Below are positions 28 to 16,750 of a stretch of DNA of 30,533 bases, piece by piece. Positions within the stretch are counted from its first letter, which is position 1. Each line of letters begins with the position of its first letter. The translations under genes were made by a program, and so were the position numbers. This DNA comes from a virus: IMG/VR virus record IMGVR_UViG_3300034685_000125, positions 1 through 30,533 of that record. The stretch is one strand, 5' to 3'. The notes beneath the pieces are model-generated. The model did no database searches. It saw only the letters and a list, made by a program, of their open reading frames with translations, and was not told the DNA's origin.

Positions 28-705
28 TTACTTAGCTAAATAAACATACTTATAAGGTTCTGTTTTTGATGTAGTATGTGAAGTCTTTCCATCAACCCAA
101 CAATAGAAAAATGGGGAGCGATAATGTGAAAAGTGTCTTGCCACATATTTAGCAGATGAGTCTACTGCCCACACTTTCGTATCCACTTCCCAATCTAATT
201 TCTTTTCATACAAGCAAAAAGAAATATCCTCATCAATACTATTCCCTTCTTTATCAATATAGTAAAAACAATTATTCTCTAAAGAAATAGCTTTAAACAC
301 ATCTTTTACTCTGGTCTTCTCTACTTTTACAAAATCACCGTCTTTTATTTTGTATATCATATTTTCCTTTACTATCACTTTACCTTTATCTTTCTTAATT
401 TCGGTGAGCGTATTATATAATTCCTCTAAAAATGTAGTCATCAATTGTTCAAATACAAGGTTTTTAGAAGTATTACCAACAAACTTATCTAAACTTGGGT
501 CACAGAAGAAAAAATAATCTGTGTCATATAAAGTAAAAATAAGTTTGTAAATCTCATCAACAAACTCTACATCTACAAACTTCCCCTCTCCTTTTATATC
601 TTCAATCATAGCATTAACAACATCTCCAATAGATTTTGTAAGCTCATCGCCTATCTTAAAGTAGTAGCCATCTCCATCATAGTAAACTGAGTATTTATTA
701 TTCAT
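28..705 (-). CDS. Hypothetical phage protein, 225 aa
   Basis: A soluble, acidic, aromatic-rich protein (many Y, F, D, K residues) of no family I recognise. No signal peptide, membrane segment or catalytic motif is visible. The start at 705 (MNNKYSV) is preferred over an upstream in-frame codon at 726 because AGGAGG lies just before it, and because its ATG overlaps the TGA of the upstream gene by 4 bases, the usual arrangement for coupled translation. It is the third gene of a minus-strand operon driven from the promoter at 1171-1199. The stop codon abuts a G9 run in front of the next gene. Position in an early operon of small unknown genes suggests a host-takeover or accessory role, but this is inference. 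Confidence 0.75.
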   Translation of the reverse strand: MNNKYSVYYDGDGYYFKIGDELTKSIGDVVNAMIEDIKGEGKFVDVEFVDEIYKLIFTLYDTDYFFFCDPSLDKFVGNTSKNLVFEQLMTTFLEELYNTLTEIKKDKGKVIVKENMIYKIKDGDFVKVEKTRVKDVFKAISLENNCFYYIDKEGNSIDEDISFCLYEKKLDWEVDTKVWAVDSSAKYVARHFSHYRSPFFYCWVDGKTSHTTSKTEPYKYVYLAK

Positions 706-983
706 TTTTCCTCCTTTAATTTCCAACCATAGTTAAAAACAAACATTCTTGCCCCCATCTCAGCTTCTTTTTCAGTTACCTTCCTATCTGTCCAAAATAA
801 TGTTCTTACCTTCCTGTCTTTACGTATTTTTTTAGCTAACCATTTTATAAAGTCTTCTTCCTCTTCTCTTGTCCACTGATACTCCCAAAACCAATTCTCT
901 TTATTAAAATCCATCTTATCGTAATCTGCACCAACTCTACTACACATTTCTCTTAAAATATATTCTAAACCTTTACTAAACAT
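702..983 (-). CDS. Hypothetical phage protein, 93 aa
   Basis: A small, highly charged and tryptophan-rich protein with runs of acidic residues (REEEED) and basic residues (KKIRKDRK). It looks mostly helical and has no membrane segment. The start is supported by an AGGAGG site that also contains the end of the preceding small gene (stop at 986-988). Its TGA overlaps the ATG of the next gene by 4 bases. Codon use and base composition match its neighbours. Family unknown; small phage proteins of this kind in early operons often bind a host protein, which here is only a guess. Confidence 0.75.
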   Translation of the reverse strand: MFSKGLEYILREMCSRVGADYDKMDFNKENWFWEYQWTREEEEDFIKWLAKKIRKDRKVRTLFWTDRKVTEKEAEMGARMFVFNYGWKLKEEK

Positions 984-985
984 AA

Positions 986-1144
986 TTACCTCCTATTATT
1001 TTTCCCTGTTAATTTCATTTTACAAAGTCTATAAGTAGCATCTGTTATTAACTTCCTACTATATAGACTCTCAACTAAATATATCTTGTCTTTCAAAGTA
1101 TCTAAGTAAGAACACCCAACTAACAATCTACCTAAACTAATCAT
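986..1144 (-). CDS. Hypothetical small protein, 52 aa
   Basis: First gene of the minus-strand operon and too short for a standard ORF cut-off. The protein begins MISLGRLLVGCSYL and ends in a basic tail (KLTGKNNRR). The start is well supported: a GGAGGAAG ribosome binding site stands 5 bases before the ATG, about 25 bases downstream of the -10 box of the promoter at 1171-1199. The stop lies two bases before the ATG of the 93-aa gene, and the AGGAGG of that gene is formed by the last codons (AAT AGG AGG) here. Two cysteine residues, no clear membrane helix, no recognised family. Confidence 0.65.
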   Translation of the reverse strand: MISLGRLLVGCSYLDTLKDKIYLVESLYSRKLITDATYRLCKMKLTGKNNRR

Positions 1145-1170
1145 AACTTCCTCCTTCATTTTATATATAC

Positions 1171-1199
1171 ATTATAACAAAAAATTCAGGTTTTGTCAA
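1171..1199 (-). promoter_or_regulatory. Sigma70-type promoter for the 1144-28 operon
   Basis: Reading left, TTGACA (1199-1194), a 17-base spacer and TATAAT (1176-1171), followed by GTATATATAAAAT and then the ribosome binding site of the 52-aa gene. The box-to-start cassette is nearly identical to that at 3436-3467 in front of the unrelated gene at 3468. Confidence 0.85.
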
Positions 1200-1210
1200 T
1201 AAAAATCTTA

Positions 1211-1333
1211 CCGAAATTTCCCCCCACACTTAAATATTATGGAAAATTTCAATAGGCAAACATATAATTTAAATATTATAACTTTGCTTTACGAGAAATT
1301 TTCCATAACCTATACCATTGGGGGAAAATTCGG
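1211..1333. repeat. Nested inverted repeats between divergent promoters
   Basis: Two inverted repeats are nested around one centre. The outer arms are 1211-1224 and 1320-1333 (13 of 14 positions complementary, CCGAAATTTCCCCC-like). The inner arms are 1238-1250 and 1295-1307 (perfect, TATGGAAAATTTC). The AT-rich core also repeats TTAAATATTAT-type sequence. The element fills the space between the two divergent -35 boxes (1194-1199 and 1345-1350), so it is well placed for a shared operator. A replication origin is an alternative. Confidence 0.7.
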
Positions 1334-1344
1334 AAAAAAAGAAA

Positions 1345-1373
1345 TTGACTTTTGGTTATTTTTGAGTTATAAT
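1345..1373 (+). promoter_or_regulatory. Sigma70-type promoter for the large non-coding RNA
   Basis: TTGACT (1345-1350), a 17-base spacer and TATAAT (1368-1373). Transcription would begin near 1380, right at the 5' arm of the stem that joins the two ends of the RNA region. Confidence 0.85.
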
Positions 1374-1379
1374 ATATGT

Positions 1380-3055
1380 ATAAAATAGAACTATAGTAAG
1401 TATTGTATCTGTGGGAAGTAAGCCTATTAGAGAGGGAGCTTTCACTGGGGGATACATATACTTACAACATTATCTAAAGCTCTGTAACCCGAAAGTCCTT
1501 GATGTATAAGTGCTGGCGATAACCCGAGTAGCCAATGTCCAGCTGAAGAACTTATACGTCATAATCGAATGAGGACGGAGAGTAGAAAAGACTGAGAGTT
1601 CTACTAAGTTGTCAATCCTTAGTAGACGAGCTCAGGTACTCGAAATCTGGAACGTATTATTTTTGAAGTATATAAAAGAGTGGTTATAAGAGTAATATGG
1701 GGGGCATAAAGTTTTCAGCTACATTATTTCTTCTAATGTAGTTCCCAAAAAGCACTTCACGTTTACCCGTCACATTCACCTAAGATTACTAAATATTAAA
1801 AAAGAGTGTGATGAAAAAAGGAAGTTGAAGATTAGCGAGAATTGATTAAGAAGAGTTACGATTTACTTTGATAATGGGTTAAAGTGATGAGAGAGATGGT
1901 ATGGCGAGAGGCTGTACCCCCCTTCACTCCATTTGATGAGTATTTACGAGCTTTTCTGATTAATGATTGCTAATGTTTGTCTTCTTGGTACTTAGAGCAT
2001 TTACTACGAGTCATTTCTAACAATTTCATCCCCAATACTAAAAAATAGGTTTATAATAGCAATAAGGTTCTGGAATTGTTAGGAGTAGAAGTTAATCTTT
2101 TTTGACCACACTCCATAATGAAAAACAATGGCACCCTCCCGCTTGTTCGGTAATCAATCCGACGGTGTGCTTAGAGGGAGAGCTTGCTTATGGGCACAAG
2201 CTGGCGATGGGATTAACAACTACCTTTGGTGAAGCGTGGTAAGTGATTAGAATAGGTAAATAGACTTCCTACAATCTATTTACCTTGCTGTAGCTCATTA
2301 ATAAAAGCTTTCCTGAGTGTTATGTGTTTGTAAGTAAGTTTCACTAAGAGTTGATGGTTATGCCAGTAGGAACTCTTCAGCTGACTCTCGGACTATTAAC
2401 CCTACTATTAAAAAGCCTTGTATCGGCGAAGAGTTGGTATGAGGATGGGGTTGTATAGTGCTTATGAATACTTAATACACTTCGAGTTAGGTTTTAGTAA
2501 GTAAGCATTCTTTCATCCATCGGAACAAGCTATACTTACTAAAACTGAAAGATGAAAGGGAACAGCAGTAAAGGTGAGATGGTTGCTTTATTTAACTTCG
2601 ATTAAACTAAAATAAGCAACAATGAGAACCTTTACAGTTAATGAGAGCAGAGAACTCATTACTAAAGCATATTTAAAAATTACTAAGAAGTGAAGTGAAC
2701 TATCGTGACAGAGGTGAGGACGGTCTGAAACAAATAATCCATACAACACGAAGAGAATAACCAACTATACCAAACTTTTTTTCATAATTTGGTAGGTTAT
2801 TCAATTTGCTTCGGAGAGTATGGTAATTTTTGTTTCTAACTCTACGTTAAAAGAAATGTAGGGCGTAGGGGTTAAATACGTTCTAATTACCTGAGTAATT
2901 AGCCGTCCTTGAGATAAGTTAAAGTATATAAGGTACTTCTTAACATAGTAGGCTGTTGGAAGGAAAGGGGAAAGCTATATCCATCGAAAAAACTTTCCCA
3001 GACGTATTTTACTTATTTAACATTGAAATTATATAGTTTAGAATAGTTCTTTTAT
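1380..3055 (+). ncRNA. Candidate giant structured RNA, about 1.7 kb
   Basis: No frame is open for more than short stretches on either strand, yet the region is richer in G and C than the flanking genes and full of stems. Visible helices (5' arm/3' arm): 1387-1394/3043-3050 joining both ends; 1396-1409/1451-1465; 1495-1499/1572-1576; 1501-1511/1550-1560 with 1512-1516/1539-1543 inside; 1592-1596/1631-1635 with 1600-1608/1618-1626 inside; 1719-1726/1734-1741; 2181-2186/2197-2202; 2255-2264/2275-2284; 2491-2503/2533-2545 with a pseudoknot 2510-2517/2551-2558; 2568-2575/2628-2635 with 2582-2588/2614-2620 inside; 2639-2645/2655-2661; 2755-2762/2795-2802 with 2769-2774/2788-2793 inside; 2874-2881/3002-3009 enclosing 2883-2890/2895-2902, 2918-2922/2940-2944 and 2968-2974/2993-2999. 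Known giant RNAs of phages (GOLLD, ROOL) are similar in style, but as I recall they are well under 1 kb; I cannot assign this one to a family. The 3' end is uncertain because no classical terminator follows. Confidence 0.75.
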
Positions 3056-3274
3056 ATCTTAGTCTGTGTTTTATTAACCCCCGCCCCGTCCTTGCTATCC
3101 TAAGTCCTTGATAATCCACAACATTTACTGCTACTCACTACTTGCTACGCTATTATTTTGTCCTTTATCACCAAGTAGATAACAGTGCCTTAACTACCCC
3201 TCAGAAACCTTGTCCTTATTGGTTCTGCAAAAATCCTTCTGTTTCACAGGCTACAACTTGCCTTAAAAAACTAC
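3056..3274. other. Non-coding pyrimidine-rich spacer, no feature recognised
   Basis: About 220 bases that are C- and T-rich on the + strand, between the end of the structured RNA region and the next promoter. An open frame crossing it (from 3142) has no ribosome binding site and runs through the promoter boxes, so I do not call it. No tRNA or clear hairpin is visible. It may be a 3' tail of the RNA. Confidence 0.4.
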
Positions 3275-3303
3275 TTGACATCACCTTAAAAATTTGCTAT
3301 AAT
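3275..3303 (+). promoter_or_regulatory. Sigma70-type promoter
   Basis: TTGACA (3275-3280), 17 bases, TATAAT (3298-3303), followed by ATATGTATAAA as at the large-RNA promoter. It drives a short transcript region containing a 14- to 20-codon ORF and may also read into the gene at 3468. Confidence 0.85.
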
Positions 3304-3334
3304 ATATGTATAAAGAATGAGAAAGGAGGTGGTT

Positions 3335-3379
3335 GTGAGAGGTCAGGTTGCTTCAGAAGGGCTTTTTCAGAGCTTGTAA
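3335..3379 (+). CDS. Possible 14-aa leader peptide
   Basis: A GTG start stands 4 bases after AAAGGAGGT, a near-perfect complement of the 16S rRNA tail, and about 25 bases after the expected transcription start. The peptide would read (V/M)RGQVASEGLFQSL. An in-frame ATG at 3317 lies too close to the 5' end to use that site. A stem TTTTTCAGA/TCTGAAAAA spans the end of the ORF and the space before the next promoter. A short ORF with such strong signals may be a leader peptide or regulator, or the site may be left over from a deletion. Confidence 0.3.
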   Translation: MRGQVASEGLFQSL

Positions 3380-3412
3380 TTTCAGGATAGAGCAAATTCT
3401 GAAAAAAAGTTC

Positions 3413-3441
3413 TTGACAAGGCATCAAATTTTTGCTATAAT
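3413..3441 (+). promoter_or_regulatory. Sigma70-type promoter for the gene at 3468
   Basis: TTGACA (3413-3418), 17 bases, TATAAT (3436-3441), then GTATATATAAAAT and AGGAGG. The spacer shares the string AAATTTTTGC/AAAATTTGC with the promoter at 3275, suggesting the two arose by duplication. Confidence 0.85.
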
Positions 3442-3467
3442 GTATATATAAAATAAAGGAGGAAGTT

Positions 3468-3845
3468 ATGAAAGATTACAAAAACATTACTTTAAAATTC
3501 GAAGTTAAGGACGACGAGACACAGGACGTAGTTAAACAGTATATAGACTCTGATTTTGACAACGCTCATATTTTTAACTATGCTGAGGAAAGCTACAATT
3601 GGTCAAAGAAGAAGACTGTTGGAAAGCTTGTAGCATTAGGCGTCTACAAAAAATCCACAGAGCCAGAAACCAAAGAGGACAAGCCAAAGAAATTAAGCAA
3701 AAAAGAAATCATTGCTGAACTTGAATCCTTTATGGGCATAGATTTGGCAGGTCTTCTCCCAGCTAAAAGGGAAGAACTCTTTGCTATATATACGTTCACT
3801 AAATCACTTAGGGACGAAATCAACACCCTTAAAAATAACGGATAA
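3468..3845 (+). CDS. HTH-like phage protein, 125 aa (paralogue of 6321-6650)
   Basis: The N-terminal third is a ferredoxin-like or small mixed segment. Around residues 45-62 a stretch (WSKKKTVGKLVALGVYKK) resembles the helix-turn-helix end of a SANT/Myb-like or winged-helix domain. A charged linker (EPETKEDKPKK) leads to a helical C-terminus (KKEIIAELESFMGIDLAGL). This layout matches small proteins I recall from many large phages, in which an HTH is followed by a linker and a short helical domain; DNA binding is therefore likely but not shown. The gene has its own promoter, a GGAGGAAG site 4-5 bases before ATG and a strong terminator, so it is expressed alone. A paralogue lies on the other strand at 6321-6650. 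Confidence 0.75.
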   Translation: MKDYKNITLKFEVKDDETQDVVKQYIDSDFDNAHIFNYAEESYNWSKKKTVGKLVALGVYKKSTEPETKEDKPKKLSKKEIIAELESFMGIDLAGLLPAKREELFAIYTFTKSLRDEINTLKNNG

Positions 3846-3848
3846 CAA

Positions 3849-3879
3849 ACCTCGCTGTTTCACTTTTTCCGTTACTCAG
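3849..3879 (+). repeat. 31-bp motif, copy 1 (copy 2 at 6658-6688)
   Basis: Begins ACCTCGCTGTTT and ends GTTACTCnG; 27 of 31 bases match the copy at 6658-6688 in the same orientation. Here it follows the stop codon of the HTH-like gene; there it precedes the start of the paralogue, which is on the opposite strand. Confidence 0.65.
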
Positions 3880-3880
3880 A

Positions 3881-3919
3881 AGCCCGACAGGTGCAGAGCC
3901 TCGTCGGGCTTTTTATTTT
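3881..3919 (+). terminator. Rho-independent terminator after the HTH-like gene
   Basis: Stem AGCCCGAC (3881-3888)/GTCGGGCT (3903-3910), 14-base loop, then TTTTATTTT. Confidence 0.9.
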
Positions 3920-4460
3920 GTTGATTTCAAAATATAACGCTGTTCTATTGCGGCGATACAAAGACTACGACGTTTTCTGAAACCTTGTCGTAGCAAAGAA
4001 AACCGAGTATAACGCTGTTCTATTCCGGCTGTGGGGTGCCCCTTAAGGATTACATAGCATAACGGAGTTTTATTACCCAGGTGACTTAGACTTGGGCAAT
4101 AGCTAAAACCCTTACAAATCAAAGAAAACCGAGTATAACGCTGTTCTATTGCTGCTGTGGGGTCGCTTCGCTCCCCACTTGGGCCGGAGCCTGTCATTGC
4201 CCTAAACTATTCATAATAAAAGGAAAATCGTCTTCAACATTTCAGACTTATACCAAACTTGAAACCCTTGCAAATCAAAGAAAATAGAATATAACGCTGT
4301 TTGATTGCTGCTATAGGGAGCGGGGTTAGGGTGAAAGTCCGGAAGTTGGTTGATGCTCACCCTTGCTGATTTTGGGAGACTAACCCTGAAGCTAAAACCC
4401 TTGCAAATCTTGAAAACTAAAATATAACGCTGTTTGATTGCAGCTATAGGGGGGAGAGAG
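3920..4460 (+). repeat. Array of about six 57-bp repeats separated by unique hairpins
   Basis: The most conserved core, TATAACGCTGTT, starts at 3933, 4008, 4134, 4290 and 4423; a degenerate copy (ATAACGGAGTTTTATT) is at about 4050. The full unit is AAACCCTTGCAAATCAAAG, an A-rich stretch, then the core followed by YKATTGCTGCTRTRGGG. Spacing is irregular (75 to 156 bases). The sequences between copies differ from each other, but each can fold: CTACGAC/GTCGTAG near 3964-3992; TATTACCCA/TGGGCAATA near 4070-4102; GTGGGG/CCCCAC near 4156-4178; nested GGTTAG/CTAACC and GGGTGA/TCACCC between 4324 and 4386. Long minus-strand reading frames across the array are by-products of the repeat. Function unknown: array of small RNAs, repeated promoters or a processing array are all possible. 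Confidence 0.75.
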
Positions 4461-4485
4461 GAAAAATCAAACAAAAAATAAGAAT

Positions 4486-4628
4486 GTTCTAAAATGAGTG
4501 ATTGTTCATTCACTGAGAAAAATAAAACAAATCCCGGCGTTGTTCTAAAATGAGTGATTGTTCATTCACTGAGAAAAATCAAACAAAAAATAAGAATGTT
4601 CTAAAATGAGTGATTGTTCATTCACTGA
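4486..4628. repeat. Three 56-bp tandem repeats with 22-bp dyads
   Basis: Copies start at 4486, 4542 and 4598, exactly 56 bases apart. Each starts GTTCTAAAATGAGTGATTG. The dyads at 4495-4516, 4551-4572 and 4607-4628 are identical and match their own reverse complement at 8 of 11 half-site positions (TnAGTGAnTG...CAnTCACTnA), as expected for a dimeric repressor or initiator site. The second unit differs in its linker (ATCCCGGCG). Operator array or iteron-type origin are the likely roles. Confidence 0.75.
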
Positions 4629-4639
4629 TAAGCAAAAAA

Positions 4640-4679
4640 TAAAATGAGCATATGCTTTTAATTAGTTGTTAGCATATGC
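4640..4679 (-). terminator. Probable terminator of the minus-strand operon
   Basis: Reading left, a hairpin with arms 4679-4671 and 4656-4648 (AGCATATGC/GCATATGCT, each arm containing the palindrome GCATATGC) follows the last gene and is followed by TCATTTTATTTTTTG. T-rich but interrupted, so less certain than the terminator at 3881. Confidence 0.55.
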
Positions 4680-4689
4680 CCGTAAACTC

Positions 4690-4884
4690 TTATACCGGAT
4701 GGATAACAATTTTAATAAATAGCATAAATGTTAAAAGTAATATTAAAGTATTTTTAACAGTTTTAGCACTGCTTGAATCTTTATTTAAAACTGTTAATTG
4801 TAATACTGAATCAATAAATAATATTGTTATCCCTATTTCAAATTTATCAGCAATCATAAAAACAAGCCCTAAAATTGTAAGCAT
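4690..4884 (-). CDS. Small membrane protein, 64 aa, two membrane segments
   Basis: The protein is almost entirely hydrophobic. Residues 1-34 (MLTILGLVFMIADKF...) form a first membrane helix, a charged turn (NKDSSSAKTVKN) follows, and residues 48-62 (TLILLLTFMLFIKIV) form a second. AGGAG lies 7 bases before the ATG. It is the last gene of the operon that starts at 6650 and is followed by a hairpin. Two-helix proteins of this size in phages include holins and superinfection-exclusion proteins; nothing here decides between them, and no endolysin gene is adjacent. The frame on the other strand at 4676-4900 is a shadow without a ribosome binding site. Confidence 0.7.
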   Translation of the reverse strand: MLTILGLVFMIADKFEIGITILFIDSVLQLTVLNKDSSSAKTVKNTLILLLTFMLFIKIVIHPV

Positions 4885-4913
4885 TTTTAACTCCTTTTAA
4901 TATTTTAGTTATA

Positions 4914-4939
4914 GTTAGCAGGGCTTAAGCCCTGCTAAC
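4914..4939. repeat. Perfect 26-bp palindrome centred on a stop codon
   Basis: Half-site GTTAGCAGGGCTT and its exact complement. The TAA of the exonuclease gene (4925-4927, minus strand) lies at the dyad centre. In RNA it forms a 12- to 13-bp hairpin between the exonuclease and membrane-protein genes. Confidence 0.9.
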
Positions 4940-5800
4940 TAAATATTGCTGTATCAAATCTTTAGTATAACTATCATTTAATTTTTCAAGCTGATATTTA
5001 AATTTCTCTTTCATACTCTCTGATATTTTAGATGTCTTTTTAAACTTGCTAAAATATTCAAGTAAAACAGTTAACCAATTTCCGTTAAGTTTTAAATTTC
5101 TTTTTCCTATCCTCTTTATTATATAATCGTAAATTTCAGCCTCAATTTCAGCGTCTTTTAATGCTGTATGTTTTTCAGTAAAATTTTTATTGTTACTGAT
5201 AAAACAATATATACTCTCTGCTGTCATTTTTAAATTCCCTTTTTCTGTAAAGAATTTAAAGAATTTCCTTTTTTCTGCGTCTGTTAACTCTGCTATGCTC
5301 TTATTTGTTTCTTTTAAGTGTCTTTCTAATTCAATCATTTTTTCAGTGTGCCATTCGGTTAATGTTGTATAATACTTTAAAGGTAAAGCATCACCAATCA
5401 TTAAATATGTATCAATTAAATAATTGGCTTTAAAGTATAATTTAAAATTTGATAAGTGTTGCAGGTCAAATTTTAATAAATTATGCCCGTATATTACCTT
5501 AAACTGTAAATCAGTTGTAAATATTCCTTGTAATGATTTCAAATTTAAAACAATGCCTTCAATGTTTACATATTTTTTAGGTTTATAAAATTTCATTATA
5601 TCATTTTCCTTATTTAGATGGAAATGATAAAAAGGGTTAACAAAAAATGTTAGTCCCTTCTTTTTGCTCTTATTATATAAACCTATTTCAAATGGTGTTA
5701 TAGTCCATTTATTATTATTTTTTAGTGTGAATGTCTCAATATCAAGTCCTATTATATCATTTTTCCAAGTTTTTAATTCTGCTTTTATTTTCTCAATCAT
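4925..5800 (-). CDS. DnaQ-like (DEDDh) 3'-5' exonuclease, 291 aa
   Basis: The three exonuclease motifs of the DnaQ/RNase T superfamily are in order: GLDIET with D20 and E22 (Exo I), GHNLLKFDL with D112 (Exo II) and HTALKDAE with H211 and D216 (Exo III, DEDDh type). These residues bind two metal ions that hydrolyse single-stranded DNA or RNA from the 3' end. The insert between Exo II and III is long, and about 75 residues follow Exo III, rich in lysine and without a recognised domain. The start at 5800 (MIEKIK) is preferred to a GTG four codons upstream because GTGAGG then serves as the ribosome binding site. Likely roles are phage DNA metabolism, degradation of host nucleic acid or RNA trimming. 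It shares an operon with a HAD phosphatase, which can heal or recycle nucleotide ends; that link is inference. Confidence 0.85.
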   Translation of the reverse strand: MIEKIKAELKTWKNDIIGLDIETFTLKNNNKWTITPFEIGLYNKSKKKGLTFFVNPFYHFHLNKENDIMKFYKPKKYVNIEGIVLNLKSLQGIFTTDLQFKVIYGHNLLKFDLQHLSNFKLYFKANYLIDTYLMIGDALPLKYYTTLTEWHTEKMIELERHLKETNKSIAELTDAEKRKFFKFFTEKGNLKMTAESIYCFISNNKNFTEKHTALKDAEIEAEIYDYIIKRIGKRNLKLNGNWLTVLLEYFSKFKKTSKISESMKEKFKYQLEKLNDSYTKDLIQQYLVSRA

Positions 5801-5823
5801 TTTTAGCCTCACTTATTTTAGTA

Positions 5824-5847
5824 TAGCAACGGCTTAAGCCGTTGCTA
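5824..5847. repeat. Perfect 24-bp palindrome centred on a stop codon
   Basis: Half-site TAGCAACGGCTT and its exact complement; the TAA of the HAD gene (5834-5836, minus strand) is at the centre. Same design as 4914-4939 but different arm sequence. Confidence 0.9.
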
Positions 5848-6262
5848 ATTTATATCTTTTTTCAAAATATTGTAAATCCCATTGTATAACCTTTTCACTC
5901 ATAAGCAAATGTGGTTTATACTTTTTAGCGTTGTCAATTAATATTGCCTCGTCTTTAACTGCTTTTTTAATCTCGTGCCATATCTTTAACTTATTACCTT
6001 CACAGTATAAAAAATCTGTTACATTCTCAAGCAGATTTAATTCTGTTAAATGCTCTTTTACTTTTTTATGTGTTTCACTACTTCTGTTTGTAAAGATAAT
6101 AAACTCTCTGCACTTTAACCAATTAATAAATGTTTTATTAATCGGTTGCGTTTTTAGTCCGTCCCAAGTTTTTAAAAACAACTCAAGGTTGTTGGTTATA
6201 TCCACGTCAAACGGATTTTTTATTATAGTATTATCGAAATCTACTAACAATAGTTTACTCAT
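5834..6262 (-). CDS. HAD-superfamily phosphatase, 142 aa
   Basis: Motif I is LLVDFDNTI with the nucleophile D8 and acid/base D10; motif II is IIFTNRSS with T58; motif IV is AILIDNAKKYKP with D110. These are the hallmarks of haloacid-dehalogenase-type phosphatases. At 142 residues with no large cap insert it is close to minimal phage HAD enzymes such as nucleotide or polynucleotide 3'-phosphatases, but no kinase domain is present. The substrate is unknown. It lies in an operon between the HTH-like gene and the exonuclease, with AAGGAG 8 bases before ATG. The stop codon sits at the apex of the palindrome at 5824-5847. Confidence 0.85.
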   Translation of the reverse strand: MSKLLLVDFDNTIIKNPFDVDITNNLELFLKTWDGLKTQPINKTFINWLKCREFIIFTNRSSETHKKVKEHLTELNLLENVTDFLYCEGNKLKIWHEIKKAVKDEAILIDNAKKYKPHLLMSEKVIQWDLQYFEKRYKLATA

Positions 6263-6281
6263 TTTTTAACTCCTTTTTTTA

Positions 6282-6309
6282 GTAAACGGCTGTTAAATCA
6301 GCCGTTTAC
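6282..6309. repeat. Intergenic hairpin in the minus-strand operon
   Basis: Arms GTAAACGGCTG (6282-6292) and CAGCCGTTTAC (6299-6309), 11 perfect pairs and a 6-base loop, between the stop of the HTH-like gene and the ribosome binding site of the HAD gene. No T-run follows, so it is not a classical terminator. Confidence 0.85.
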
Positions 6310-6320
6310 AAGTATTTTTT

Positions 6321-6650
6321 TTAATTTTCCTGTGTTTTTACCTTTAACCATTCAAGCAAACTGATTAAAGTATCTTTTTTTGCCTCTATTAAACCGTATA
6401 AGTCCAATTCTGTTATAATCTCAAGAGCCTCAATTATCTCTTTTTTCGTAATCTTTTGTGTTTTTTCTACTGTTGGTTTTTCCATTTTTTGATATAATTT
6501 CAAATATTGTAACTTACCAATTGCTGATTTTTTGCTTAACTTAATTCCTATTTCTGCCATCTCATTAAGAGTTTTTTCCAAATCTTTACTGTTTTTTAAA
6601 TAAACCTCTGCTAATTTCTTGTTAACTTCTTGTTTGCTTAAATTTTCCAT
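6321..6650 (-). CDS. HTH-like phage protein, 109 aa (paralogue of 3468-3845)
   Basis: First gene of the operon read left to 4690. The N-terminus (about residues 1-35) is helical and charged. Residues 38-53 (LSKKSAIGKLQYLKLY) align with the HTH-like stretch of the protein at 3468-3845, followed by a shared EKP-type linker and the shared C-terminal pattern KKEII..LE....DL.GL..AK...L....LK. The two N-termini differ. The leader of about 120 bases contains GCGAGG as a modest ribosome binding site. Probably a DNA-binding regulator, perhaps acting on the operators and palindromes nearby; that is inference from fold and position only. Confidence 0.75.
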   Translation of the reverse strand: MENLSKQEVNKKLAEVYLKNSKDLEKTLNEMAEIGIKLSKKSAIGKLQYLKLYQKMEKPTVEKTQKITKKEIIEALEIITELDLYGLIEAKKDTLISLLEWLKVKTQEN

Positions 6651-6657
6651 AATTTTA

Positions 6658-6688
6658 ACCTCGCTGTTTTATTTTTTCTGTTACTCTG
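6658..6688 (+). repeat. 31-bp motif, copy 2 (copy 1 at 3849-3879)
   Basis: Matches the copy at 3849-3879 in 27 of 31 bases. On the minus strand it forms the untranslated leader just before the start of the 109-aa gene, including its ribosome binding site. Confidence 0.65.
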
Positions 6689-6781
6689 TGTTTCCTTATC
6701 CCTGTTAAGTTCCGTTTACTCCTACCTTTAAAGAAGTGCCTGCTTAACTCTTATTCAACTGTTATTGTGTATCTGTTTATA

Positions 6782-6809
6782 AATATATCAGATTGACAAA
6801 TAAAGTCAA
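6782..6809 (-). promoter_or_regulatory. Sigma70-type promoter for the 6650-4690 operon, with operator-like palindrome
   Basis: Reading left, TTGACT (6809-6804), 16 bases, TATATT (6787-6782). The spacer contains TTGTCAA, a partial inverted copy of the -35 region. Directly upstream is the perfect 18-bp palindrome AGAAATTTTAAAATTTCT (6811-6828), a possible operator. Confidence 0.6.
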
Positions 6810-6885
6810 TAGAAATTTTAAAATTTCTTTCCCTTTACTATCAATAAGTTATAAGCTTTTCAAAAAATATTTAAAAATTTTTCTT

Positions 6886-6957
6886 TTGGCATATAACTTG
6901 CTACATCAGTTGGCATATAACTTGCTACATCAGTTGGCATATAACTTGCTATAACAG
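6886..6957. repeat. Three 24-bp tandem repeats (iteron-like)
   Basis: Copies at 6886-6909, 6910-6933 and 6934-6957 begin TTGGCATATAACTTGCTAC; the third ends differently. Tandem 20-25-bp repeats of this kind bind replication initiators, repressors or, in phages, the small terminase at pac/cos. The position about 650 bases upstream of the small terminase gene permits the last reading. Confidence 0.8.
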
Positions 6958-7005
6958 ACAGGGTGGTTTTTAGACTCATTCTAAATAAGCCCCGATGTTC
7001 CTCAT

Positions 7006-7142
7006 AAAAAATCCCGCAGGGGTATTTTTCAAACTTCCCCCTCTATAACAATAAAAAATCCCGCAGGGGTATTTTTCAAACTTCCCTCCATATTTCCAAC
7101 TTCCACCTCTATAACAACAAAAAATCCCGCAGGGGTATTTTT
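7006..7142. repeat. Three terminator-like hairpins in series
   Basis: Near-identical hairpins at 7006-7029, 7053-7076 and 7119-7142: A6, TCCC, loop GCA, GGGG, then TATTTTT. Being A-rich on the left and T-rich on the right, each could terminate transcription from either side. They separate the early operons from the late promoter at 7344. Each is followed by TTTTTCAAACTTCCC, the motif that continues as an 18-bp array to the right. Confidence 0.75.
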
Positions 7143-7220
7143 CAAACTTCCCCTATATTTCAAACTTCCCCTATATTTCAAACTTCCCCTATATTTCAAA
7201 CTTCCCCCATATTTCAAACC
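7141..7220. repeat. 18-bp tandem repeat array
   Basis: TTCAAAC recurs at 7141, 7159, 7177, 7195 and 7213, exactly 18 bases apart; the unit is TTTCAAACTTCCCCTATA. Related copies follow each of the three hairpins to the left, giving about eight copies in 200 bases. A minus-strand frame across it (7029-7217) uses a TTG start with no convincing context and merely reads the repeats. Confidence 0.85.
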
Positions 7221-7343
7221 TTTATCCCCTTAGTTTCTGTTTTCCCACTGTTTGTCTGGATGTTTGATAATACTTTTTTCTACATGCCCTAACCTTTGTA
7301 AAACCAAGTTCGTAAAAATGGGCAAAATTCCGAATTTTTGTTC

Positions 7344-7372
7344 TTGACTATTGCCTCAAATTTTGGTATACT
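7344..7372 (+). promoter_or_regulatory. Promoter for the packaging/structural genes
   Basis: TTGACT (7344-7349), 17 bases, TATACT (7367-7372). It lies 230 bases before the first structural gene. Confidence 0.75.
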
Positions 7373-7379
7373 TAGGGTA

Positions 7380-7603
7380 TACATGAGGGAGAAACTACAA
7401 CTGGACAACTACTTATTTATTTTAGCAGGGTGTGAGTTTGCTCCCTTCAATGTATATTTTCCCTGTGCGCAGATATTTTCTTTGCCCTCCATAATATAAA
7501 TACCTTCCTTGGGCAGCTTCTCACTTGCGCCGAGGGAAACTTACGTAGATTTTCGCAAAGATGACAATAGTTTCAAAAAAATTTCAAAAACAGGGAGACT
7601 TAT
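7380..7603 (+). promoter_or_regulatory. Long 5' leader of the structural operon
   Basis: About 225 bases of untranslated leader with higher GC than the genes. GGGAG near 7387 can pair with CTCCC at 7441, and CCTTGG near 7513 with CCGAGG near 7538. No known riboswitch pattern is recognised. A 38-codon frame from the ATG at 7383 would start almost at the 5' end of the transcript without a ribosome binding site and is not called. The packaging initiation site (cos or pac) could lie here; nothing proves it. Confidence 0.4.
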
Positions 7604-8011
7604 ATGGATGCATTAAAACCTATAAAACTGGACGCCAAGTATGTTAAGCTTGTGAATGACTATCTTTCCGGGACCGATTTACCTTCTTTAGCAGAAGCAC
7701 ATTGTATCCCTGTTGAAGAAGTATCTAATTTTTTGAATCGTAAGGAAGTTCGTTCATATATAGCTACTGTACTTCAAAATTATGGTTATTTAAATCCTGT
7801 AACGAGAATAAACTTACTTAATAGAATGATAGAGCAGAAGATTGAGATAGCTGAGGAAACTGATACTCCATTAACTAAGAAAGATATGGTAGAGTTGATT
7901 AAATTATTACAGACTGAACAACAAATGATACAGAAAACCTCACAACCAGAAGAGCCTGTTGTAAATGTTAATTATCTTAAGTTAGTTCAAGAGTTATCAG
8001 GAGAAGAGTAA
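7604..8011 (+). CDS. Probable terminase small subunit, 135 aa
   Basis: The small terminase binds the phage packaging site and recruits the large subunit. The N-terminal part (residues 20-55) reads as a helix-turn-helix of the kind in small terminases: SLAEAHCIPVEEVSNFLNR followed by KEVRSYI. The middle is helical and the C-terminal 30 residues are acidic and proline-containing, as expected for oligomerisation and large-subunit contact. A CAGGGAG site stands before the ATG. The call rests on this pattern and on its place directly before the large subunit, separated only by a 40-aa membrane protein gene. Confidence 0.75.
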   Translation: MDALKPIKLDAKYVKLVNDYLSGTDLPSLAEAHCIPVEEVSNFLNRKEVRSYIATVLQNYGYLNPVTRINLLNRMIEQKIEIAEETDTPLTKKDMVELIKLLQTEQQMIQKTSQPEEPVVNVNYLKLVQELSGEE

Positions 8012-8134
8012 ATGTGGCTCTCTATACTTCTCATTATTTTAGCAAGTATATCTCTTTATTATGAGGTTTATTTAGTTACAATGTTCTTTTTAGCATGTGC
8101 GTGGATTAATTATATGTATATAGGGAGAGATTAA
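8012..8134 (+). CDS. 40-aa membrane protein between terminase genes
   Basis: Starts immediately after the stop of the small terminase (TAAATG) and ends with TAATG shared with the large terminase start, so translation must be coupled. Its sequence is hydrophobic throughout: MWLSILLIILASISLYYEVY, then LVTMFFLACAWINYMYIGRD. This makes one long or two short membrane helices with a charged C-terminal end. The GGAGAAG near the end of the small terminase gene can serve as ribosome binding site. No family recognised. A membrane protein here is unusual; it could be a small holin or antiholin-like protein, or a membrane tether. Confidence 0.65.
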   Translation: MWLSILLIILASISLYYEVYLVTMFFLACAWINYMYIGRD

Positions 8135-9360
8135 TGAGGATACAAATATCGCCTAAAAAACTATTCACAAATAAACTCAATCTCACACCATCTAAGAAAC
8201 AACAGGAAATCTTCGAATCTGTACAAAAGAATAAAGTTACATTAGTTAAAGCTACGCGAAGAGGTGGAAAATCTTTAACAGCAGGAACTTGTGCTTCTGC
8301 TCTTGCTTTAACTCCATCTACTCGTACTACTATTTTAGCTCCGACAATACGATTAACTGAGATTATTTTTAATACTACTGCTGATATAATAACCTCTAAA
8401 CTAAATATCGAACCTACTTCCTTAAACTACAAAGACAAAGTATTAAAAACTGATTGGGGGTCTGAGGTTCGTTCTGCTTCGTTTAAAAATATGAAGCAAG
8501 TATTAGGAGTATCTAATGACTTATTTATTATAGATGAGGCGGCAGTAGCAGATACAGATAACTTTGAGTGGTTATTTCAAGAGATATTTCCTACATTAGT
8601 TGAAACAGATGGGCACTTATTAGCAATTACAACACCAAGAGGGTATAATTACTTCTTTGACTTATGGGAGTATGCAAAAACACAACCTGATTGGAACACT
8701 ATTTCATATACAATTTACGATGTTGACCATATACCAAGAGAGGAAGTTGAAACATTAAAAGCACATTACTTCAACTTAGGGATGGAAAAGTTATGGGAAC
8801 AGGAATTCATGGCTAACTTTATTGCTTTTACAGGGCAGATTTACTCATTTTTACCTGAACCATACACATCTGAAGAACCACCGCAAGGAGATTATTTTAT
8901 TGGTATTGACCCAGGGGCTGCTCACTTATTTGCTGTAGTTGTAGTATGTATTAATGATAAGGGAGTATTTATTCAAGATGGATATGCTTCAACTGGGGCA
9001 ACGGGAGACCATGCACAGATAATACAAGAATTTATTAATAAGTATGACCCTTTAGAAATTTATATAGACCATGCAGCAAAACAAACAGCAGTAGACTTAG
9101 CTTATGAGTATGATATATCTTGTCGTAATGCTAATAAAGCTGTGGAAGAAGGTATTAATTTTATGAGAGGGTTGAAAGGGAGACTATTTATTAATCAGAA
9201 CTCCCAGATTTTTGATACTTTTATGACTCAATGGAACTTATATAAAGAGAAAGAGGGGAGGATTATAAAAAAGAACGATGACTTATTAGATGCTCTCAGG
9301 TATGCCGTATATACTGCTTATCAAGATTTTTACGTTGGGTCATCAATTTTTACTACATAA
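8134..9360 (+). CDS. Terminase large subunit, 408 aa
   Basis: The packaging motor: an N-terminal ATPase pumps DNA into the prohead and a C-terminal RNase H-like nuclease cuts the concatemer. Walker A is ATRRGGKS (residues 40-47); Walker B is FIIDEA with D134 and E135; the coupling motif is AITTP (164-168). Nuclease acidic residues are D259 (FIGIDPG), D312 (YIDHA) and D382/D383 with D386 (NDDLLDALRYA). The length is normal for this family. It overlaps the preceding small gene by one base; AGGGAGAG is the ribosome binding site. Confidence 0.95.
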   Translation: MRIQISPKKLFTNKLNLTPSKKQQEIFESVQKNKVTLVKATRRGGKSLTAGTCASALALTPSTRTTILAPTIRLTEIIFNTTADIITSKLNIEPTSLNYKDKVLKTDWGSEVRSASFKNMKQVLGVSNDLFIIDEAAVADTDNFEWLFQEIFPTLVETDGHLLAITTPRGYNYFFDLWEYAKTQPDWNTISYTIYDVDHIPREEVETLKAHYFNLGMEKLWEQEFMANFIAFTGQIYSFLPEPYTSEEPPQGDYFIGIDPGAAHLFAVVVVCINDKGVFIQDGYASTGATGDHAQIIQEFINKYDPLEIYIDHAAKQTAVDLAYEYDISCRNANKAVEEGINFMRGLKGRLFINQNSQIFDTFMTQWNLYKEKEGRIIKKNDDLLDALRYAVYTAYQDFYVGSSIFTT

Positions 9361-9369
9361 GGGGCAGAG

Positions 9370-10536
9370 ATGGGAATAAAACAATGGATGGCTGAGAAGC
9401 TATTTAAACTTACACCTAATCGTTATATATCAACATCTATAACTGAAATTGATATGTCTTCAACGTATGAGGCTATATCAGTTTTATCAAGATGTATTGA
9501 TATGATAGTTAATTCAGCAATTGAAGTACCATTAAACGTATATGAATTTAATGGTAGATATTATAAACCAGTAGAAAGGCGTCCATCTTGGGCAAAGTTA
9601 CTTAATTCACCTTCTACAGAGATGGATACACATACGTTTTACAAGACAATTTACAGGGATTTATTATTTAAAGGGAATACGCTTCTTTATAACACCAGAT
9701 TAGAATGGCAATATATACCTGAATACACCCTTGATTTAACTAATGGGAAGTTAAGAATAGGGGATAAGGAGGTACCTTATACTGATGATTTTGTTTTTAT
9801 TAGGCTTTTACATGGGTCTAATGAGTATTTTGCTAAACCGTATATAGACAGAGTATCTTCAGAAATAGACTTAATTAAAAAGATGCTCAAGTTTCAATCT
9901 CAGTACTATAAGAATAATGGTGTCCCAGGAGTTATTCTTAAGACTGAAAGACCATTATCTGCATCATTAAAAGCCAGATTACTTGAAGAATTTAAAAGTA
10001 TGACCTCTATTATGACAGGTAAAGCTGGAGACCCTTATATATTAGATGGGGGAATAGAAGTTGAGCAATTAACACGCTCATTTAAAGAGTTAGAATTTAG
10101 AGAATCCCTAGATGATTTAGAATCCCGCATAATTAGAAACCTTGGTATTCCTGAAGTATTAATTAAAGGTGGTAATAATGCGAATATAACTCCCAACGTC
10201 AAAGTATTTTATAATTTTACTATTAAGCCACTTGTAGAAACAGTTGCATCAGCACTCACACACCACATCAAATTAGTTTACAGAGGGACAAAAAACGATA
10301 TTGTAATACGCCCAGATTTTGATGCAGTAAATATCCTCAGAGATGATTTTAACTCTTATTCAGCATCTGTTAGAGGATTATTTACTACAGGCATTATATC
10401 TCGTAATGAAGCGAGAGAGTTATTAAGGTTAGAAAAAACAGATGAAGATATTTTCTTAACCCCTGCGAATATAGCAGGAAGTGCAAACGACCCAAGTGTA
10501 GGGGGTAGACCAAGTGGAGGAACACAAGATGAATAA
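9370..10536 (+). CDS. Portal protein (HK97 type), 388 aa
   Basis: Forms the twelve-subunit ring through which DNA enters and leaves the capsid and on which the tail attaches. The protein shows the pattern of the HK97-like portal family: an N-terminal stretch ending YEAISVLSRCIDMI, the segment LNSPSTEMDTHTFYKTI with LLFKGNTLLY, the wing sequence FQSQYYKNNGVPG, the stem region LEFRESLDDLESRI and NLGIPEVLI, and the C-terminal FTTGIISRNEARELL. GGGGCAGAG precedes the ATG. Its 3' end overlaps the next gene by eight bases. Confidence 0.92.
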   Translation: MGIKQWMAEKLFKLTPNRYISTSITEIDMSSTYEAISVLSRCIDMIVNSAIEVPLNVYEFNGRYYKPVERRPSWAKLLNSPSTEMDTHTFYKTIYRDLLFKGNTLLYNTRLEWQYIPEYTLDLTNGKLRIGDKEVPYTDDFVFIRLLHGSNEYFAKPYIDRVSSEIDLIKKMLKFQSQYYKNNGVPGVILKTERPLSASLKARLLEEFKSMTSIMTGKAGDPYILDGGIEVEQLTRSFKELEFRESLDDLESRIIRNLGIPEVLIKGGNNANITPNVKVFYNFTIKPLVETVASALTHHIKLVYRGTKNDIVIRPDFDAVNILRDDFNSYSASVRGLFTTGIISRNEARELLRLEKTDEDIFLTPANIAGSANDPSVGGRPSGGTQDE

Positions 10537-12349
10537 GACTAAGGATTTTAAATTAGCCTCTATCTCTGATTTTGAAGTAAAGATGTTAGACGATGGCTCT
10601 GGAATAGAGATACAAGGTTACGCCTCTACTCCAGTTGTTGACAGAGACCAAGAGATTATACCAGTATCTGCAATTGATACAACAAATTGGGAAAAGAACC
10701 CTATATTGTTGTATATGCACGATAGAAGTAAACCTATCGGAAAGGTTGTATCATATGAGAAAAGAACTGATGGATTATGGGTTAAGGCTTTCATCTCTAA
10801 TGCTGCTGAGAAACTTCATGGAGTTTTAACGCTTATTAAAGATGGGGTTCTTAAAGCATTTTCAGTAGGTTTTAGGATTCATGATTATTTTGTAGATAAA
10901 GCAGGTGTTTTAGTCTACAAGGATATTGAACTATTAGAGGTATCAGTTGTTTCGATACCTGCAAATCAAGAAGCAATTTTTGAGTTTGTTAAGTCTTTAA
11001 AGGAAGATTCACATAAAAGTGATACTCCAGAAATGAATAAAAAGGGGGATATTGATTCTATGGAAAAAATGCAAGAAATGGAAGCACAACTAAAGAAACT
11101 TATGGAAGAAAAAGAAGCCGCTGAGAAAGCTCTTAAGGCTAAGGAAGAAGCTGAGAAAGCTGCAAGAGAAGAGGCTGAGAAAGCTGCACTTAAAGAAGAA
11201 GTTAAAACTACTAAAGGTGCTATTGAAAAAATGTCTGAAAGTATAGCTTCAATTACTGAAGTTATTAACACACTTAAAGAAGAAATCAAAAATATGAAAG
11301 AAGAGGTTGAGGAAACTAAGATGTCAAAACCAAAAATAGAAGTTAAATCTGCTGATAGTTCTACTATCAAAACTTTTATGGATAAATATAAAGATGCTGT
11401 AATCGAAGCACAGCTTTTTGGAAAGAAGTTTACTGATACGAAAGTATTTAGTTCACTTCCAGAAGGAGCTAAGTCTGTAAGCTTTGATGCTCAGTTTACT
11501 ACAATGGTTCATGACCAAATTCTTGAAGATGTAAAACAAAAAGCTCCATTGTTTGATTTATTCTCAAAAATGGCTGCTGGAGCTAAAACTGATGTATACC
11601 CATTTGAAGGTTCTGTAAGTTCTGGATGGGGGTCTCTTTCTCTTACTAACTATGACTATACTGGTAAAATTCAGTTTGACTATTTTAAAGCTATGGCTGG
11701 TGTAGAATATAAATATGAAGATGAGGAAGATGCAGTAATTAGCTGGTTACCAAAAGTAAGACAAGATATCGTTACTTCATTGGCTGAAATAGTTGATGAT
11801 GCAATAATTAATGGTGGTGGTACTACTGAGTACAAAGGTCTTATTGCTTATGCTAATGATAACGCAGGTACTATCTACACTGTAACTGACCCAAATAACT
11901 ACCTTACTGCTAAAGAAATAAGAGCTGCAAGAGCTAAAATGAAAAAATATGGCGTTAATCCAAAAGATTTAGTAGTTCTTATGAACTCTTACAAATATCT
12001 TCAGTTGCTTGATGACGCTGAAATAGTTACTGTAGATAAGATTGGCGATATGGCTACTTTAATTAATGGTTCTGTTGGAACTATTAATGGCTCTAACATC
12101 CTTATAAACGATAGCTTTGATGGTAATGATACTGCAAGTGCTACTGACTATTCTGCAGTTATCTTTAATAAAAACATGTTTGGGGTAAAAGCTAAGCCTG
12201 TACTTGTTGAAATAGACAAAAACATTCAAACTCAAAATAGAGTAATTGTTGGTTCTGTAAGAGTATCCTTCATTCCATTGGTTCCATTAACTGGTGGTGC
12301 TCTTCCTGCTACTGCTCCTATCGTAGTAGCTATGAGTAACGGTATATAA
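10529..12349 (+). CDS. Fused prohead protease and major capsid protein, 606 aa
   Basis: Residues about 20-160 match the S78/HK97-type prohead protease: VVDRDQEIIP, LLYMHDRS with catalytic H64, VLKAFSVGF with catalytic S112, and LLEVSVVSIPAN. Residues about 175-265 are a lysine/glutamate/alanine coiled coil corresponding to the scaffolding delta domain. The rest has the HK97 capsid fold pattern (for example EIVDDAIINGGGTTEYKG and GSVRVSFIPL at the end). In HK97 itself protease and capsid are separate genes. The ATG at 10529 is chosen over a GTG at 10514 because GGAGG (10516-10520) then is its ribosome binding site. An in-frame ATG at 11060 follows GGGGGAT and could give delta plus capsid alone. 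A terminator-like hairpin follows. Confidence 0.92.
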   Translation: MNKTKDFKLASISDFEVKMLDDGSGIEIQGYASTPVVDRDQEIIPVSAIDTTNWEKNPILLYMHDRSKPIGKVVSYEKRTDGLWVKAFISNAAEKLHGVLTLIKDGVLKAFSVGFRIHDYFVDKAGVLVYKDIELLEVSVVSIPANQEAIFEFVKSLKEDSHKSDTPEMNKKGDIDSMEKMQEMEAQLKKLMEEKEAAEKALKAKEEAEKAAREEAEKAALKEEVKTTKGAIEKMSESIASITEVINTLKEEIKNMKEEVEETKMSKPKIEVKSADSSTIKTFMDKYKDAVIEAQLFGKKFTDTKVFSSLPEGAKSVSFDAQFTTMVHDQILEDVKQKAPLFDLFSKMAAGAKTDVYPFEGSVSSGWGSLSLTNYDYTGKIQFDYFKAMAGVEYKYEDEEDAVISWLPKVRQDIVTSLAEIVDDAIINGGGTTEYKGLIAYANDNAGTIYTVTDPNNYLTAKEIRAARAKMKKYGVNPKDLVVLMNSYKYLQLLDDAEIVTVDKIGDMATLINGSVGTINGSNILINDSFDGNDTASATDYSAVIFNKNMFGVKAKPVLVEIDKNIQTQNRVIVGSVRVSFIPLVPLTGGALPATAPIVVAMSNGI

Positions 12350-16441: not shown

Positions 16442-16750
16442 TTAGACAAAAAACAAAAAAATACTTGGGACTGTGAGTATTGTCAAAAGAAAAAATTAAA
16501 TACTAAACGAAATTGCTATGGAAAGTATACTCCTACAATGATACAAGTCACTAAAGAGCAGTACTTTGATAAATGCCCTATTTCGGTAATAGATAAAAAA
16601 TGGGCAAAAATTTATGAAATAATATCTTTATCATTAAAATCTGGGATGGGGGGATATTTACCTAATCAGCTTCTAGAGTTACCCAATATCTGGTTTGATT
16701 GTTTAAACGTTATTCTAGACGCTGAGAGTGAGTTTGAGGGGGGAAGCTGA
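16382..16750 (+). CDS. Frameshift extension of the tail chaperone (gpT-like), 122 aa
   Basis: Translated only as the C-terminal half of the 244-aa frameshift product; in the -1 frame it reads on from TTT TTT GGA as GIDAREQLYDTVLATKW. No stop interrupts the frame, and the first internal ATG (16538) has no ribosome binding site. The sequence WDCEYCQKKK...RNCY carries C-x2-C and a further cysteine, possibly binding zinc. In lambda the T domain recruits the tape measure and tube proteins. It ends TGATG, sharing a base with the tape measure start. Confidence 0.8.
   Translation, partial: GIDAREQLYDTVLATKWFSGLDKKQKNTWDCEYCQKKKLNTKRNCYGKYTPTMIQVTKEQYFDKCPISVIDKKWAKIYEIISLSLKSGMGGYLPNQLLELPNIWFDCLNVILDAESEFEGGS

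What the first reader, a model, noticed from the sequence alone, without database searches (positions are those of the whole stretch)
1380..3055. Giant structured RNA of about 1.7 kb under its own promoter
A perfect sigma70-type promoter starts a coding-free region with at least 20 helices, including an 8-bp stem between position 1387 and position 3050 that ties the ends together, as the first helix does in known giant RNAs. Phages are known to carry GOLLD and ROOL RNAs, but those are much shorter as far as I recall. This may be a new class or a greatly expanded member.
Basis: partly seen in the sequence, partly recalled or inferred. Interest (0 to 1): 0.88.

Follow-up and report, generated by a model that had tools for sequence, protein, structure and literature searches.

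The report
Giant folded noncoding RNA of a phage
A virus of bacteria carries a gene-free 1.7-kilobase stretch behind its own promoter that computes as one of the largest intricately folded RNAs yet suggested in a phage, about twice the size of the known giant phage RNAs, but it has no relative in any collection searched, so its fold and role are still unproven.

Summary
The window is a 30.5-kb fragment of a very divergent tailed phage whose head genes are about 31% identical to those of T5-like phages. Positions 1380-3055 hold no gene and no protein family in six frames. They match no Rfam family, including GOLLD, ROOL, OLE and the group I/II introns. The + strand folds far better than chance: energy z -7 to -9.9, and 324 confident base pairs against 105±41 in shuffles (best of 24: 221). 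ROOL and E. coli 16S rRNA score lower by the same measures. About 39 of 63 predicted helices have mean probability of at least 0.9. Subdomains fold the same way alone as in the whole. The RNA begins at the start site of a near-consensus sigma70 promoter (11 of 12, not perfect). G/C skew flips at its 3' end. The 8-bp stem that ties the ends is only weakly beyond chance by itself, but it caps a 74-pair closing stem that about 1 in 50 shuffles reaches. No homologue was found in IMG/VR, GTDB, phage or plasmid collections, so covariation could not be tested. Best reading: a new class of giant ornate phage RNA acting as RNA, about twice GOLLD's length. Function and oligomeric state are inferred, not shown.

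The parts
1345..1373 (+). sigma70-type promoter TTGACT-17-TATAAT; expected start of transcription about 1380
   Evidence: 11 of 12; shares the downstream TATAATATATGTATAAA with the promoter at 3275 and a similar one at 3413 (family D4)
1380..3057 (+). body of the proposed giant structured noncoding RNA, about 1.68 kb
   Evidence: folding statistics, no reading frame, no protein family, no Rfam family; C/G 0.72 inside against 2.44 just downstream
1378..1394 (+). 5' arm of closing helix P1 (pairs with 3043-3057)
   Evidence: two segments, mean P 0.90 and 0.94
3043..3057 (+). 3' arm of closing helix P1
1395..1475 (+). 5' side of the long interrupted closing stem (pairs with parts of 2912-3017, e.g. 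1421-1429/2946-2954)
   Evidence: mean P 0.38-0.81; 74 pairs spanning >1200 nt in the MFE, reached by about 1 in 50 shuffles
2912..3017 (+). 3' side of the long closing stem
1480..1485 (+). helix CTCTGT, pairs with 2708-2713 ACAGAG; closes the large arm at the central junction
   Evidence: mean P 0.91
1495..1576 (+). arm with hairpin GCTGG...CCAGC
   Evidence: z -3.3 alone; its pairs have mean P 0.88 in the whole RNA
1592..1635 (+). hairpin arm
   Evidence: z -2.6, P 0.96
1653..1743 (+). two-hairpin arm
   Evidence: z -4.1, P 0.90
1753..1760 (+). long-range helix CACTTCAC, pairs with 2690-2697 GTGAAGTG
   Evidence: mean P 0.99 across 929 nt; the 945 nt from 1753 to 2697 have z -7.5
1768..1813 (+). 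hairpin
   Evidence: z -3.4
1819..1986 (+). 168-nt long arm
   Evidence: z -6.2, P 0.93
1998..2245 (+). 248-nt branched arm closed by 1998-2008/2235-2245
   Evidence: closing helix mean P 1.00; z -2.3
2254..2285 (+). 11-bp hairpin
   Evidence: z -4.6
2288..2650 (+). 363-nt branched arm; includes 12-bp hairpin 2416-2444 with loop GAAGA
   Evidence: z -5.6, P 0.81; hairpin mean P 1.00
2716..2910 (+). 195-nt arm closed by GAGGACGG/CCGTCCTT; contains the 110-nt arm 2727-2836
   Evidence: z -6.3, P 0.90; inner arm z -6.5
3058..3270 (+). C-rich, G-poor, gene-free zone just after the RNA; possible Rho-type termination zone (inferred)
   Evidence: 61 C against 25 G; no intrinsic terminator listed between 3058 and 3275 on +
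1215..1330 (.). 36-nt inverted repeat between the divergent promoters
   Evidence: I1; local z about -5 on both strands
1171..1199 (-). consensus sigma70 promoter of the divergent small genes (986-1159, 702-983, 28-708)
   Evidence: 12 of 12

Best explanation
Positions about 1380-3057 (+) encode one phage noncoding RNA of about 1.68 kb that works as RNA. A host-type sigma70 promoter starts it at about 1380. The transcript folds into about ten subdomains hung on a junction and closed by a long stem that pairs its 5' end with its 3' end. The free 3' end is probably made by Rho-type termination in the C-rich zone behind it and trimming back to the closing stem. By analogy with the phage RNAs GOLLD and ROOL, the likeliest role is a large structural RNA body that accumulates during infection, self-assembles and encloses or binds host or phage molecules. 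Shown here: gene-free, strand-biased, highly non-random fold with modular domains, promoter and start placement, sharp composition edge. Inferred: transcription as a single unit, 3' end formation, self-assembly, role.
For: MFE z -7.0 to -9.9. Confident pairs 324 against 105+-41 in shuffles (highest 221), against 86 in a coding control of equal length and 209 for the opposite strand. The same pipeline gives z -1.0 for ROOL and -3.8 for E. coli 16S. Subdomains fold alone as in the whole, z down to -6.5. No frame or protein family. Promoter start coincides with the first pairs of the closing stem. C/G switches from 0.72 to 2.44 at the 3' edge. Abundant large ncRNAs exist in other phages: GOLLD and ROOL (PMC12286853) and a ~800-nt most-abundant transcript of ICP1 (PMC7567579).
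Against: No homologue, hence no covariation. No expression data. Average local 200-nt windows are only mildly better than background (mean z -1.4 against -0.8). The closing stem is only weakly beyond chance. A hairpin-rich window at 4500-6175 also reaches z -9 on one strand, so energy z alone is not specific, although that window has far fewer confident pairs (185). No tRNA island nearby. No intrinsic terminator.
Confidence: 0.62

Rival explanations
1. Several separate smaller structured RNAs (or long leaders) lie in tandem between 1380 and 3057; the end-to-end stem is a chance of the calculation.
For: Long-range pairing is barely above shuffles (25 confident pairs spanning >900 nt against 9+-11), while subdomains such as 1819-1986 and 2716-2910 are very strong on their own.
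Against: Only one promoter of 11-12 matches lies at the 5' edge and none of that quality inside on the + strand; the helices 1753/2690, 1998/2235 and 2716/2903, which span 180-940 nt, have P of 0.97 or more; G>C composition with sharp edges.
Confidence: 0.18
2. The folding acts in DNA: a replication origin, packaging or recombination zone rich in inverted repeats, as in the gene-free zones of some related phages.
For: It lies between divergent operons next to a 36-nt inverted repeat. The reverse strand is also better than chance, z -5.9. Relative L057 has a 2.1-kb gene-free zone of palindromes and promoters at the same relative place.
Against: Strand asymmetry: 324 confident pairs on + against 209 on -. 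Palindrome-rich gene-free DNA in relative L149 shows no excess of confident pairs (72 against 85+-34), unlike this region. No tandem repeats inside.
Confidence: 0.1
3. Degraded genes or an unrecognised coding region.
For: Phage accessory regions often hold fast-evolving small genes; an unlisted protein family would be missed.
Against: Open frames are shorter than in shuffles, also with TAG read through; no Pfam or PHROG match in six frames read through stops; coding DNA of this phage folds near chance.
Confidence: 0.04
4. A divergent member of a known large RNA (GOLLD, ROOL, OLE, HEARO, group I or II intron, tmRNA/RNase P type).
For: Size, phage setting and closed multi-branch layout resemble GOLLD and ROOL in kind.
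Against: No Rfam match at gathering score in the window and nothing credible up to E 5 in 1200-3460, whereas the same search finds ROOL in a control.
Confidence: 0.06

Closest known systems
GOLLD RNA (Rfam RF02032)
   Same: Phage/prophage-encoded, gene-free, very large, multi-branched; forms a 14-mer RNA cage and rises during lysis (PMC12286853)
   Different: About half the length (>800 nt); often beside tRNA islands, none here; no covariance-model match
ROOL RNA (Rfam RF03087)
   Same: Phage/prophage-encoded ornate RNA, extremely abundant in one strain, 8-mer cage (PMC12286853, PMC5643018)
   Different: About 550-660 nt; no match here although the same search finds it in plasmid pMP118
Abundant ~800-nt noncoding transcript of Vibrio phage ICP1
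   Same: ORF-less ~1-kb space of a lytic phage without tRNAs, most abundant phage transcript (PMC7567579)
   Different: Half the size; not compared by sequence here except through the phage collection, which gave no match
OLE RNA
   Same: Large ornate RNA in bacteria (about 600 nt), forms a dimer (PMC12286853)
   Different: Cellular, with partner proteins; no Rfam match here
Group II and group I introns
   Same: Large closed multi-domain RNAs
   Different: No Rfam match; no host gene or exons: the stretch lies between divergent operons

Membership tests
GOLLD (RF02032) | match to the covariance model | tested here: not met
   no match at gathering score or E<=5
GOLLD (RF02032) | location near tRNA genes (frequent, not obligatory) | tested here: not met
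   no tRNA in 30.5 kb
ROOL (RF03087) | match to the covariance model | tested here: not met
   none; positive control works
OLE, HEARO, group I/II introns, RNase P, tmRNA | match to their Rfam models | tested here: not met
   also no tmRNA by ARAGORN
Large ornate phage noncoding RNAs (a kind, not a family) | hundreds of nt, gene-free, phage-encoded | tested here: met
   1.68 kb without frames in a phage record
Large ornate phage noncoding RNAs (a kind, not a family) | extensive secondary structure beyond chance | tested here: met
Large ornate phage noncoding RNAs (a kind, not a family) | structure supported by covariation among homologues | tested here: inconclusive
   no homologue found in any collection, so covariation could not be computed
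Large ornate phage noncoding RNAs (a kind, not a family) | stable, abundant transcript | not testable with these tools
   needs RNA-seq or northern blot
Large ornate phage noncoding RNAs (a kind, not a family) | homo-oligomeric RNA particle | not testable with these tools
   needs cryo-EM or native gel; loop complementarities found are at the level expected by chance

The most novel reading that the evidence does not exclude
A previously undescribed class of phage RNA, about 1.68 kb and roughly twice as large as the known phage ornate RNAs, folding as one closed particle (possibly RNA-only and self-assembling) that serves the phage during infection.
Probability: 0.4. Interest if true: 0.92.

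Novelty: new variant of a known kind. Interest (0 to 1): 0.72.

Why it matters
Only a few giant structured RNAs are known in bacteria and phages; two of them turned out to be self-assembling RNA cages of unknown purpose. A further, unrelated phage RNA of twice that length would show that phages evolved such bodies repeatedly, push the size of structured noncoding RNA towards that of ribosomal RNA, and give a single-transcript target for cryo-EM, probing and deletion to learn what giant phage RNAs do.

Tried and rejected
Relatives by protein: single-query scans with terminase and portal gave none; a terminase alignment and a prohead-protease DNA pattern gave about 100 contigs, all around 31% identical in the head genes, none with the RNA. 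A terminase motif pattern gave 15 contigs without a recognisable relative. Relatives by RNA: blastn in phages and plasmids (only promoter-sized hits), four exact RNA patterns in IMG/VR or GTDB (none, or chance hits outside any similar context). Most of the short matches and in the relatives cluster on the TTGACA-TATAAT promoters at 3275/3413, not on the RNA. An 11-nt tetraloop receptor (a UAUGG near 1697 with CCUAAG near 1780) was considered and rejected because the better helix 1653-1699 uses one strand. Pseudoknot candidates 1562-1569/2597-2604 (8 bp) and about 1520-1525/2870-2875 (6 bp) are at chance level. The RT-8 RNA match on the minus strand (E 0.025, 28.7 bits against a gathering score of 87) was rejected: far below threshold, wrong strand, no reverse transcriptase. 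The 2.1-kb gene-free zone of L057 and the 1.0-kb one of L149 looked like counterparts but are palindromes and promoters. A long fixed-gap terminase pattern failed through miscounting and was dropped.

Full report
What the window is. The window is a complete 30,533-bp IMG/VR virus record, linear and probably a fragment. From 7604 on it carries, on the + strand, a tailed-phage head and tail module: small and large terminase, portal, a fused prohead protease-capsid protein, tail tube, a very long protein at 16750-21600 in the tape-measure position, NlpC/P60 and tail-tip proteins. The head genes are nearest to T5-like phages but only at about 28-33% identity, and after two rounds of relatives the best terminases and portals in IMG/VR remain around 31%. 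So the phage is isolated in the collections; records very near it may have been left out of the searches, as each search states.

The observation. Region 1380-3055 has no open frame: the longest stop-free run is 58 codons, shorter than the mean of shuffled sequence, and reading TAG, TGA or both as amino acids opens nothing unusual. Six-frame read-through translations match no Pfam or PHROG family. The promoter at 1345-1373 matches 11 of 12 consensus positions; it is not perfect, but it shares its downstream TATAATATATGTATAAA with the perfect promoter at 3275 and resembles the one at 3413, which suggests a phage promoter set. Its expected start, about 1380, falls at the first pairs of the closing stem.

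Is the structure more than chance? Yes. The + strand has MFE z -8.4 (40 dinucleotide shuffles), -7.0 (50 shuffles) and -9.9 when only 100-nt blocks are shuffled so that local composition is kept. Energy alone is not specific, because a hairpin-rich stretch at 4500-6175 reaches -9 on one strand. The better measure is how well defined the ensemble is: 324 base pairs have probability above 0.9, against 105+-41 in 24 shuffles (highest 221), 86 in a coding control, 185 in the hairpin-rich stretch and 209 on the opposite strand; mean positional entropy is 0.61 against 1.25+-0.16. By the same pipeline ROOL gives z -1.0 and E. coli 16S rRNA z -3.8, neither with a significant excess of confident pairs, so this region is, if anything, an unusually well-defined structured RNA. 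Subdomains folded alone reproduce the pairs of the whole RNA (mean P 0.80-0.97), with z of -6.2, -5.6, -6.3 and -6.5 for 1819-1986, 2288-2650, 2716-2910 and 2727-2836.

What is weaker. Mean local 200-nt z is only -1.4 in the region against about -0.8 elsewhere. The 8-bp end stem is found by chance in about 1% (whole RNA shuffled) to 10% (ends shuffled) of cases. The MFE has 74 pairs spanning more than 1200 nt, close to the highest of 50 shuffles (76; mean 23), but confident pairs spanning more than 900 nt are not clearly enriched (25 against 9+-11). That the whole 1.68 kb is one closed unit therefore rests on moderate evidence; that it contains extensive real structure rests on strong evidence.

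Anatomy. P1 is 1378-1394/3043-3057. Interrupted stems follow to 1475/2912. A junction then carries a large arm (1480-1485/2708-2713) and a 195-nt arm (2716-2910). Within the large arm lie arms 1495-1576, 1592-1635 and 1653-1743, and the helix 1753-1760/2690-2697 (P 0.99), which encloses arms 1768-1813, 1819-1986, 1998-2245, 2254-2285 and 2288-2650. The sequence is G>C overall (C/G 0.72) and flips to C/G 2.44 at 3058-3270. No intrinsic terminator was found between 3058 and 3275, so Rho-type termination followed by trimming is my inference.

Homologues. I spent all eight IMG/VR scans and both GTDB scans, plus blastn against phage and plasmid records, on finding the RNA or its carriers. About 100 related head-gene contigs and larger pieces of nine of their records were searched for the RNA and for gene-free structured stretches. 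Nothing similar turned up. Two look-alikes are palindromes and promoters, and the one tested lacks an excess of confident pairs, which is a useful negative control. Covariation, the usual proof, is therefore untested, not failed.

What it is and how it may work. The simplest account is a new giant noncoding phage RNA that functions as RNA. Known counterparts in kind are GOLLD (>800 nt, 14-mer cage, rises during lysis) and ROOL (659 nt for the solved example, 8-mer cage), both phage or prophage RNAs of unknown purpose (PMC12286853), and an ~800-nt noncoding transcript that is the most abundant RNA of phage ICP1 (PMC7567579). This one belongs to none of the Rfam families (the ROOL model does find ROOL in a control), has no tRNAs nearby and is about twice as long. 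I put about 0.8 on a real structured RNA, about 0.6 on a single unit of about 1.68 kb, and about 0.3 on self-assembly.

Verdict. It is a strong candidate for a new class of giant phage RNA, unproven until homologues or a transcript are seen.

Noticed in passing
window 3929-4448: Four to five intergenic copies of a repeat (core TATAACGCTGTTYKATTGC.GCTRTRGGG, up to 75 nt alike) separated by unlike stretches of about 50-80 nt: array-like, perhaps small RNAs, regulatory repeats or a guide-type array; no known family.
   Followed up: partly
window 4461-4628: Three 56-nt tandem units each holding the inverted repeat AGTGATTGTTCATTCACT, as for operator or replication-origin sites.
   Followed up: no
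window 6651-7603: Second gene-free gap (953 nt) before the terminase with 66-nt, 24-nt and 18-nt tandem repeats and three copies of a terminator-like ATCCCGCAGGGGTATTTTT; strongest C-over-G window of the record.
   Followed up: no
window 1171-1345: Divergent consensus promoters flank a 36-nt, 78% inverted repeat 1215-1250/1295-1330, possibly a shared operator.
   Followed up: no
window 3468-3845 and 6321-6650: Two small proteins both weakly match phrog_1725 (DNA binding) and may be paralogues on opposite strands.
   Followed up: no
window 29810-30532: Tail-fibre-like protein made of internal repeats in which the contig ends.
   Followed up: no
L134 (IMGVR_UViG_3300033143_001219), 38-10856: A T5-related contig carries about 19 tRNA matches and a permuted tmRNA match at 10447-10798, unusual for a phage-like contig; the record may be phage or mixed.
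   Followed up: no
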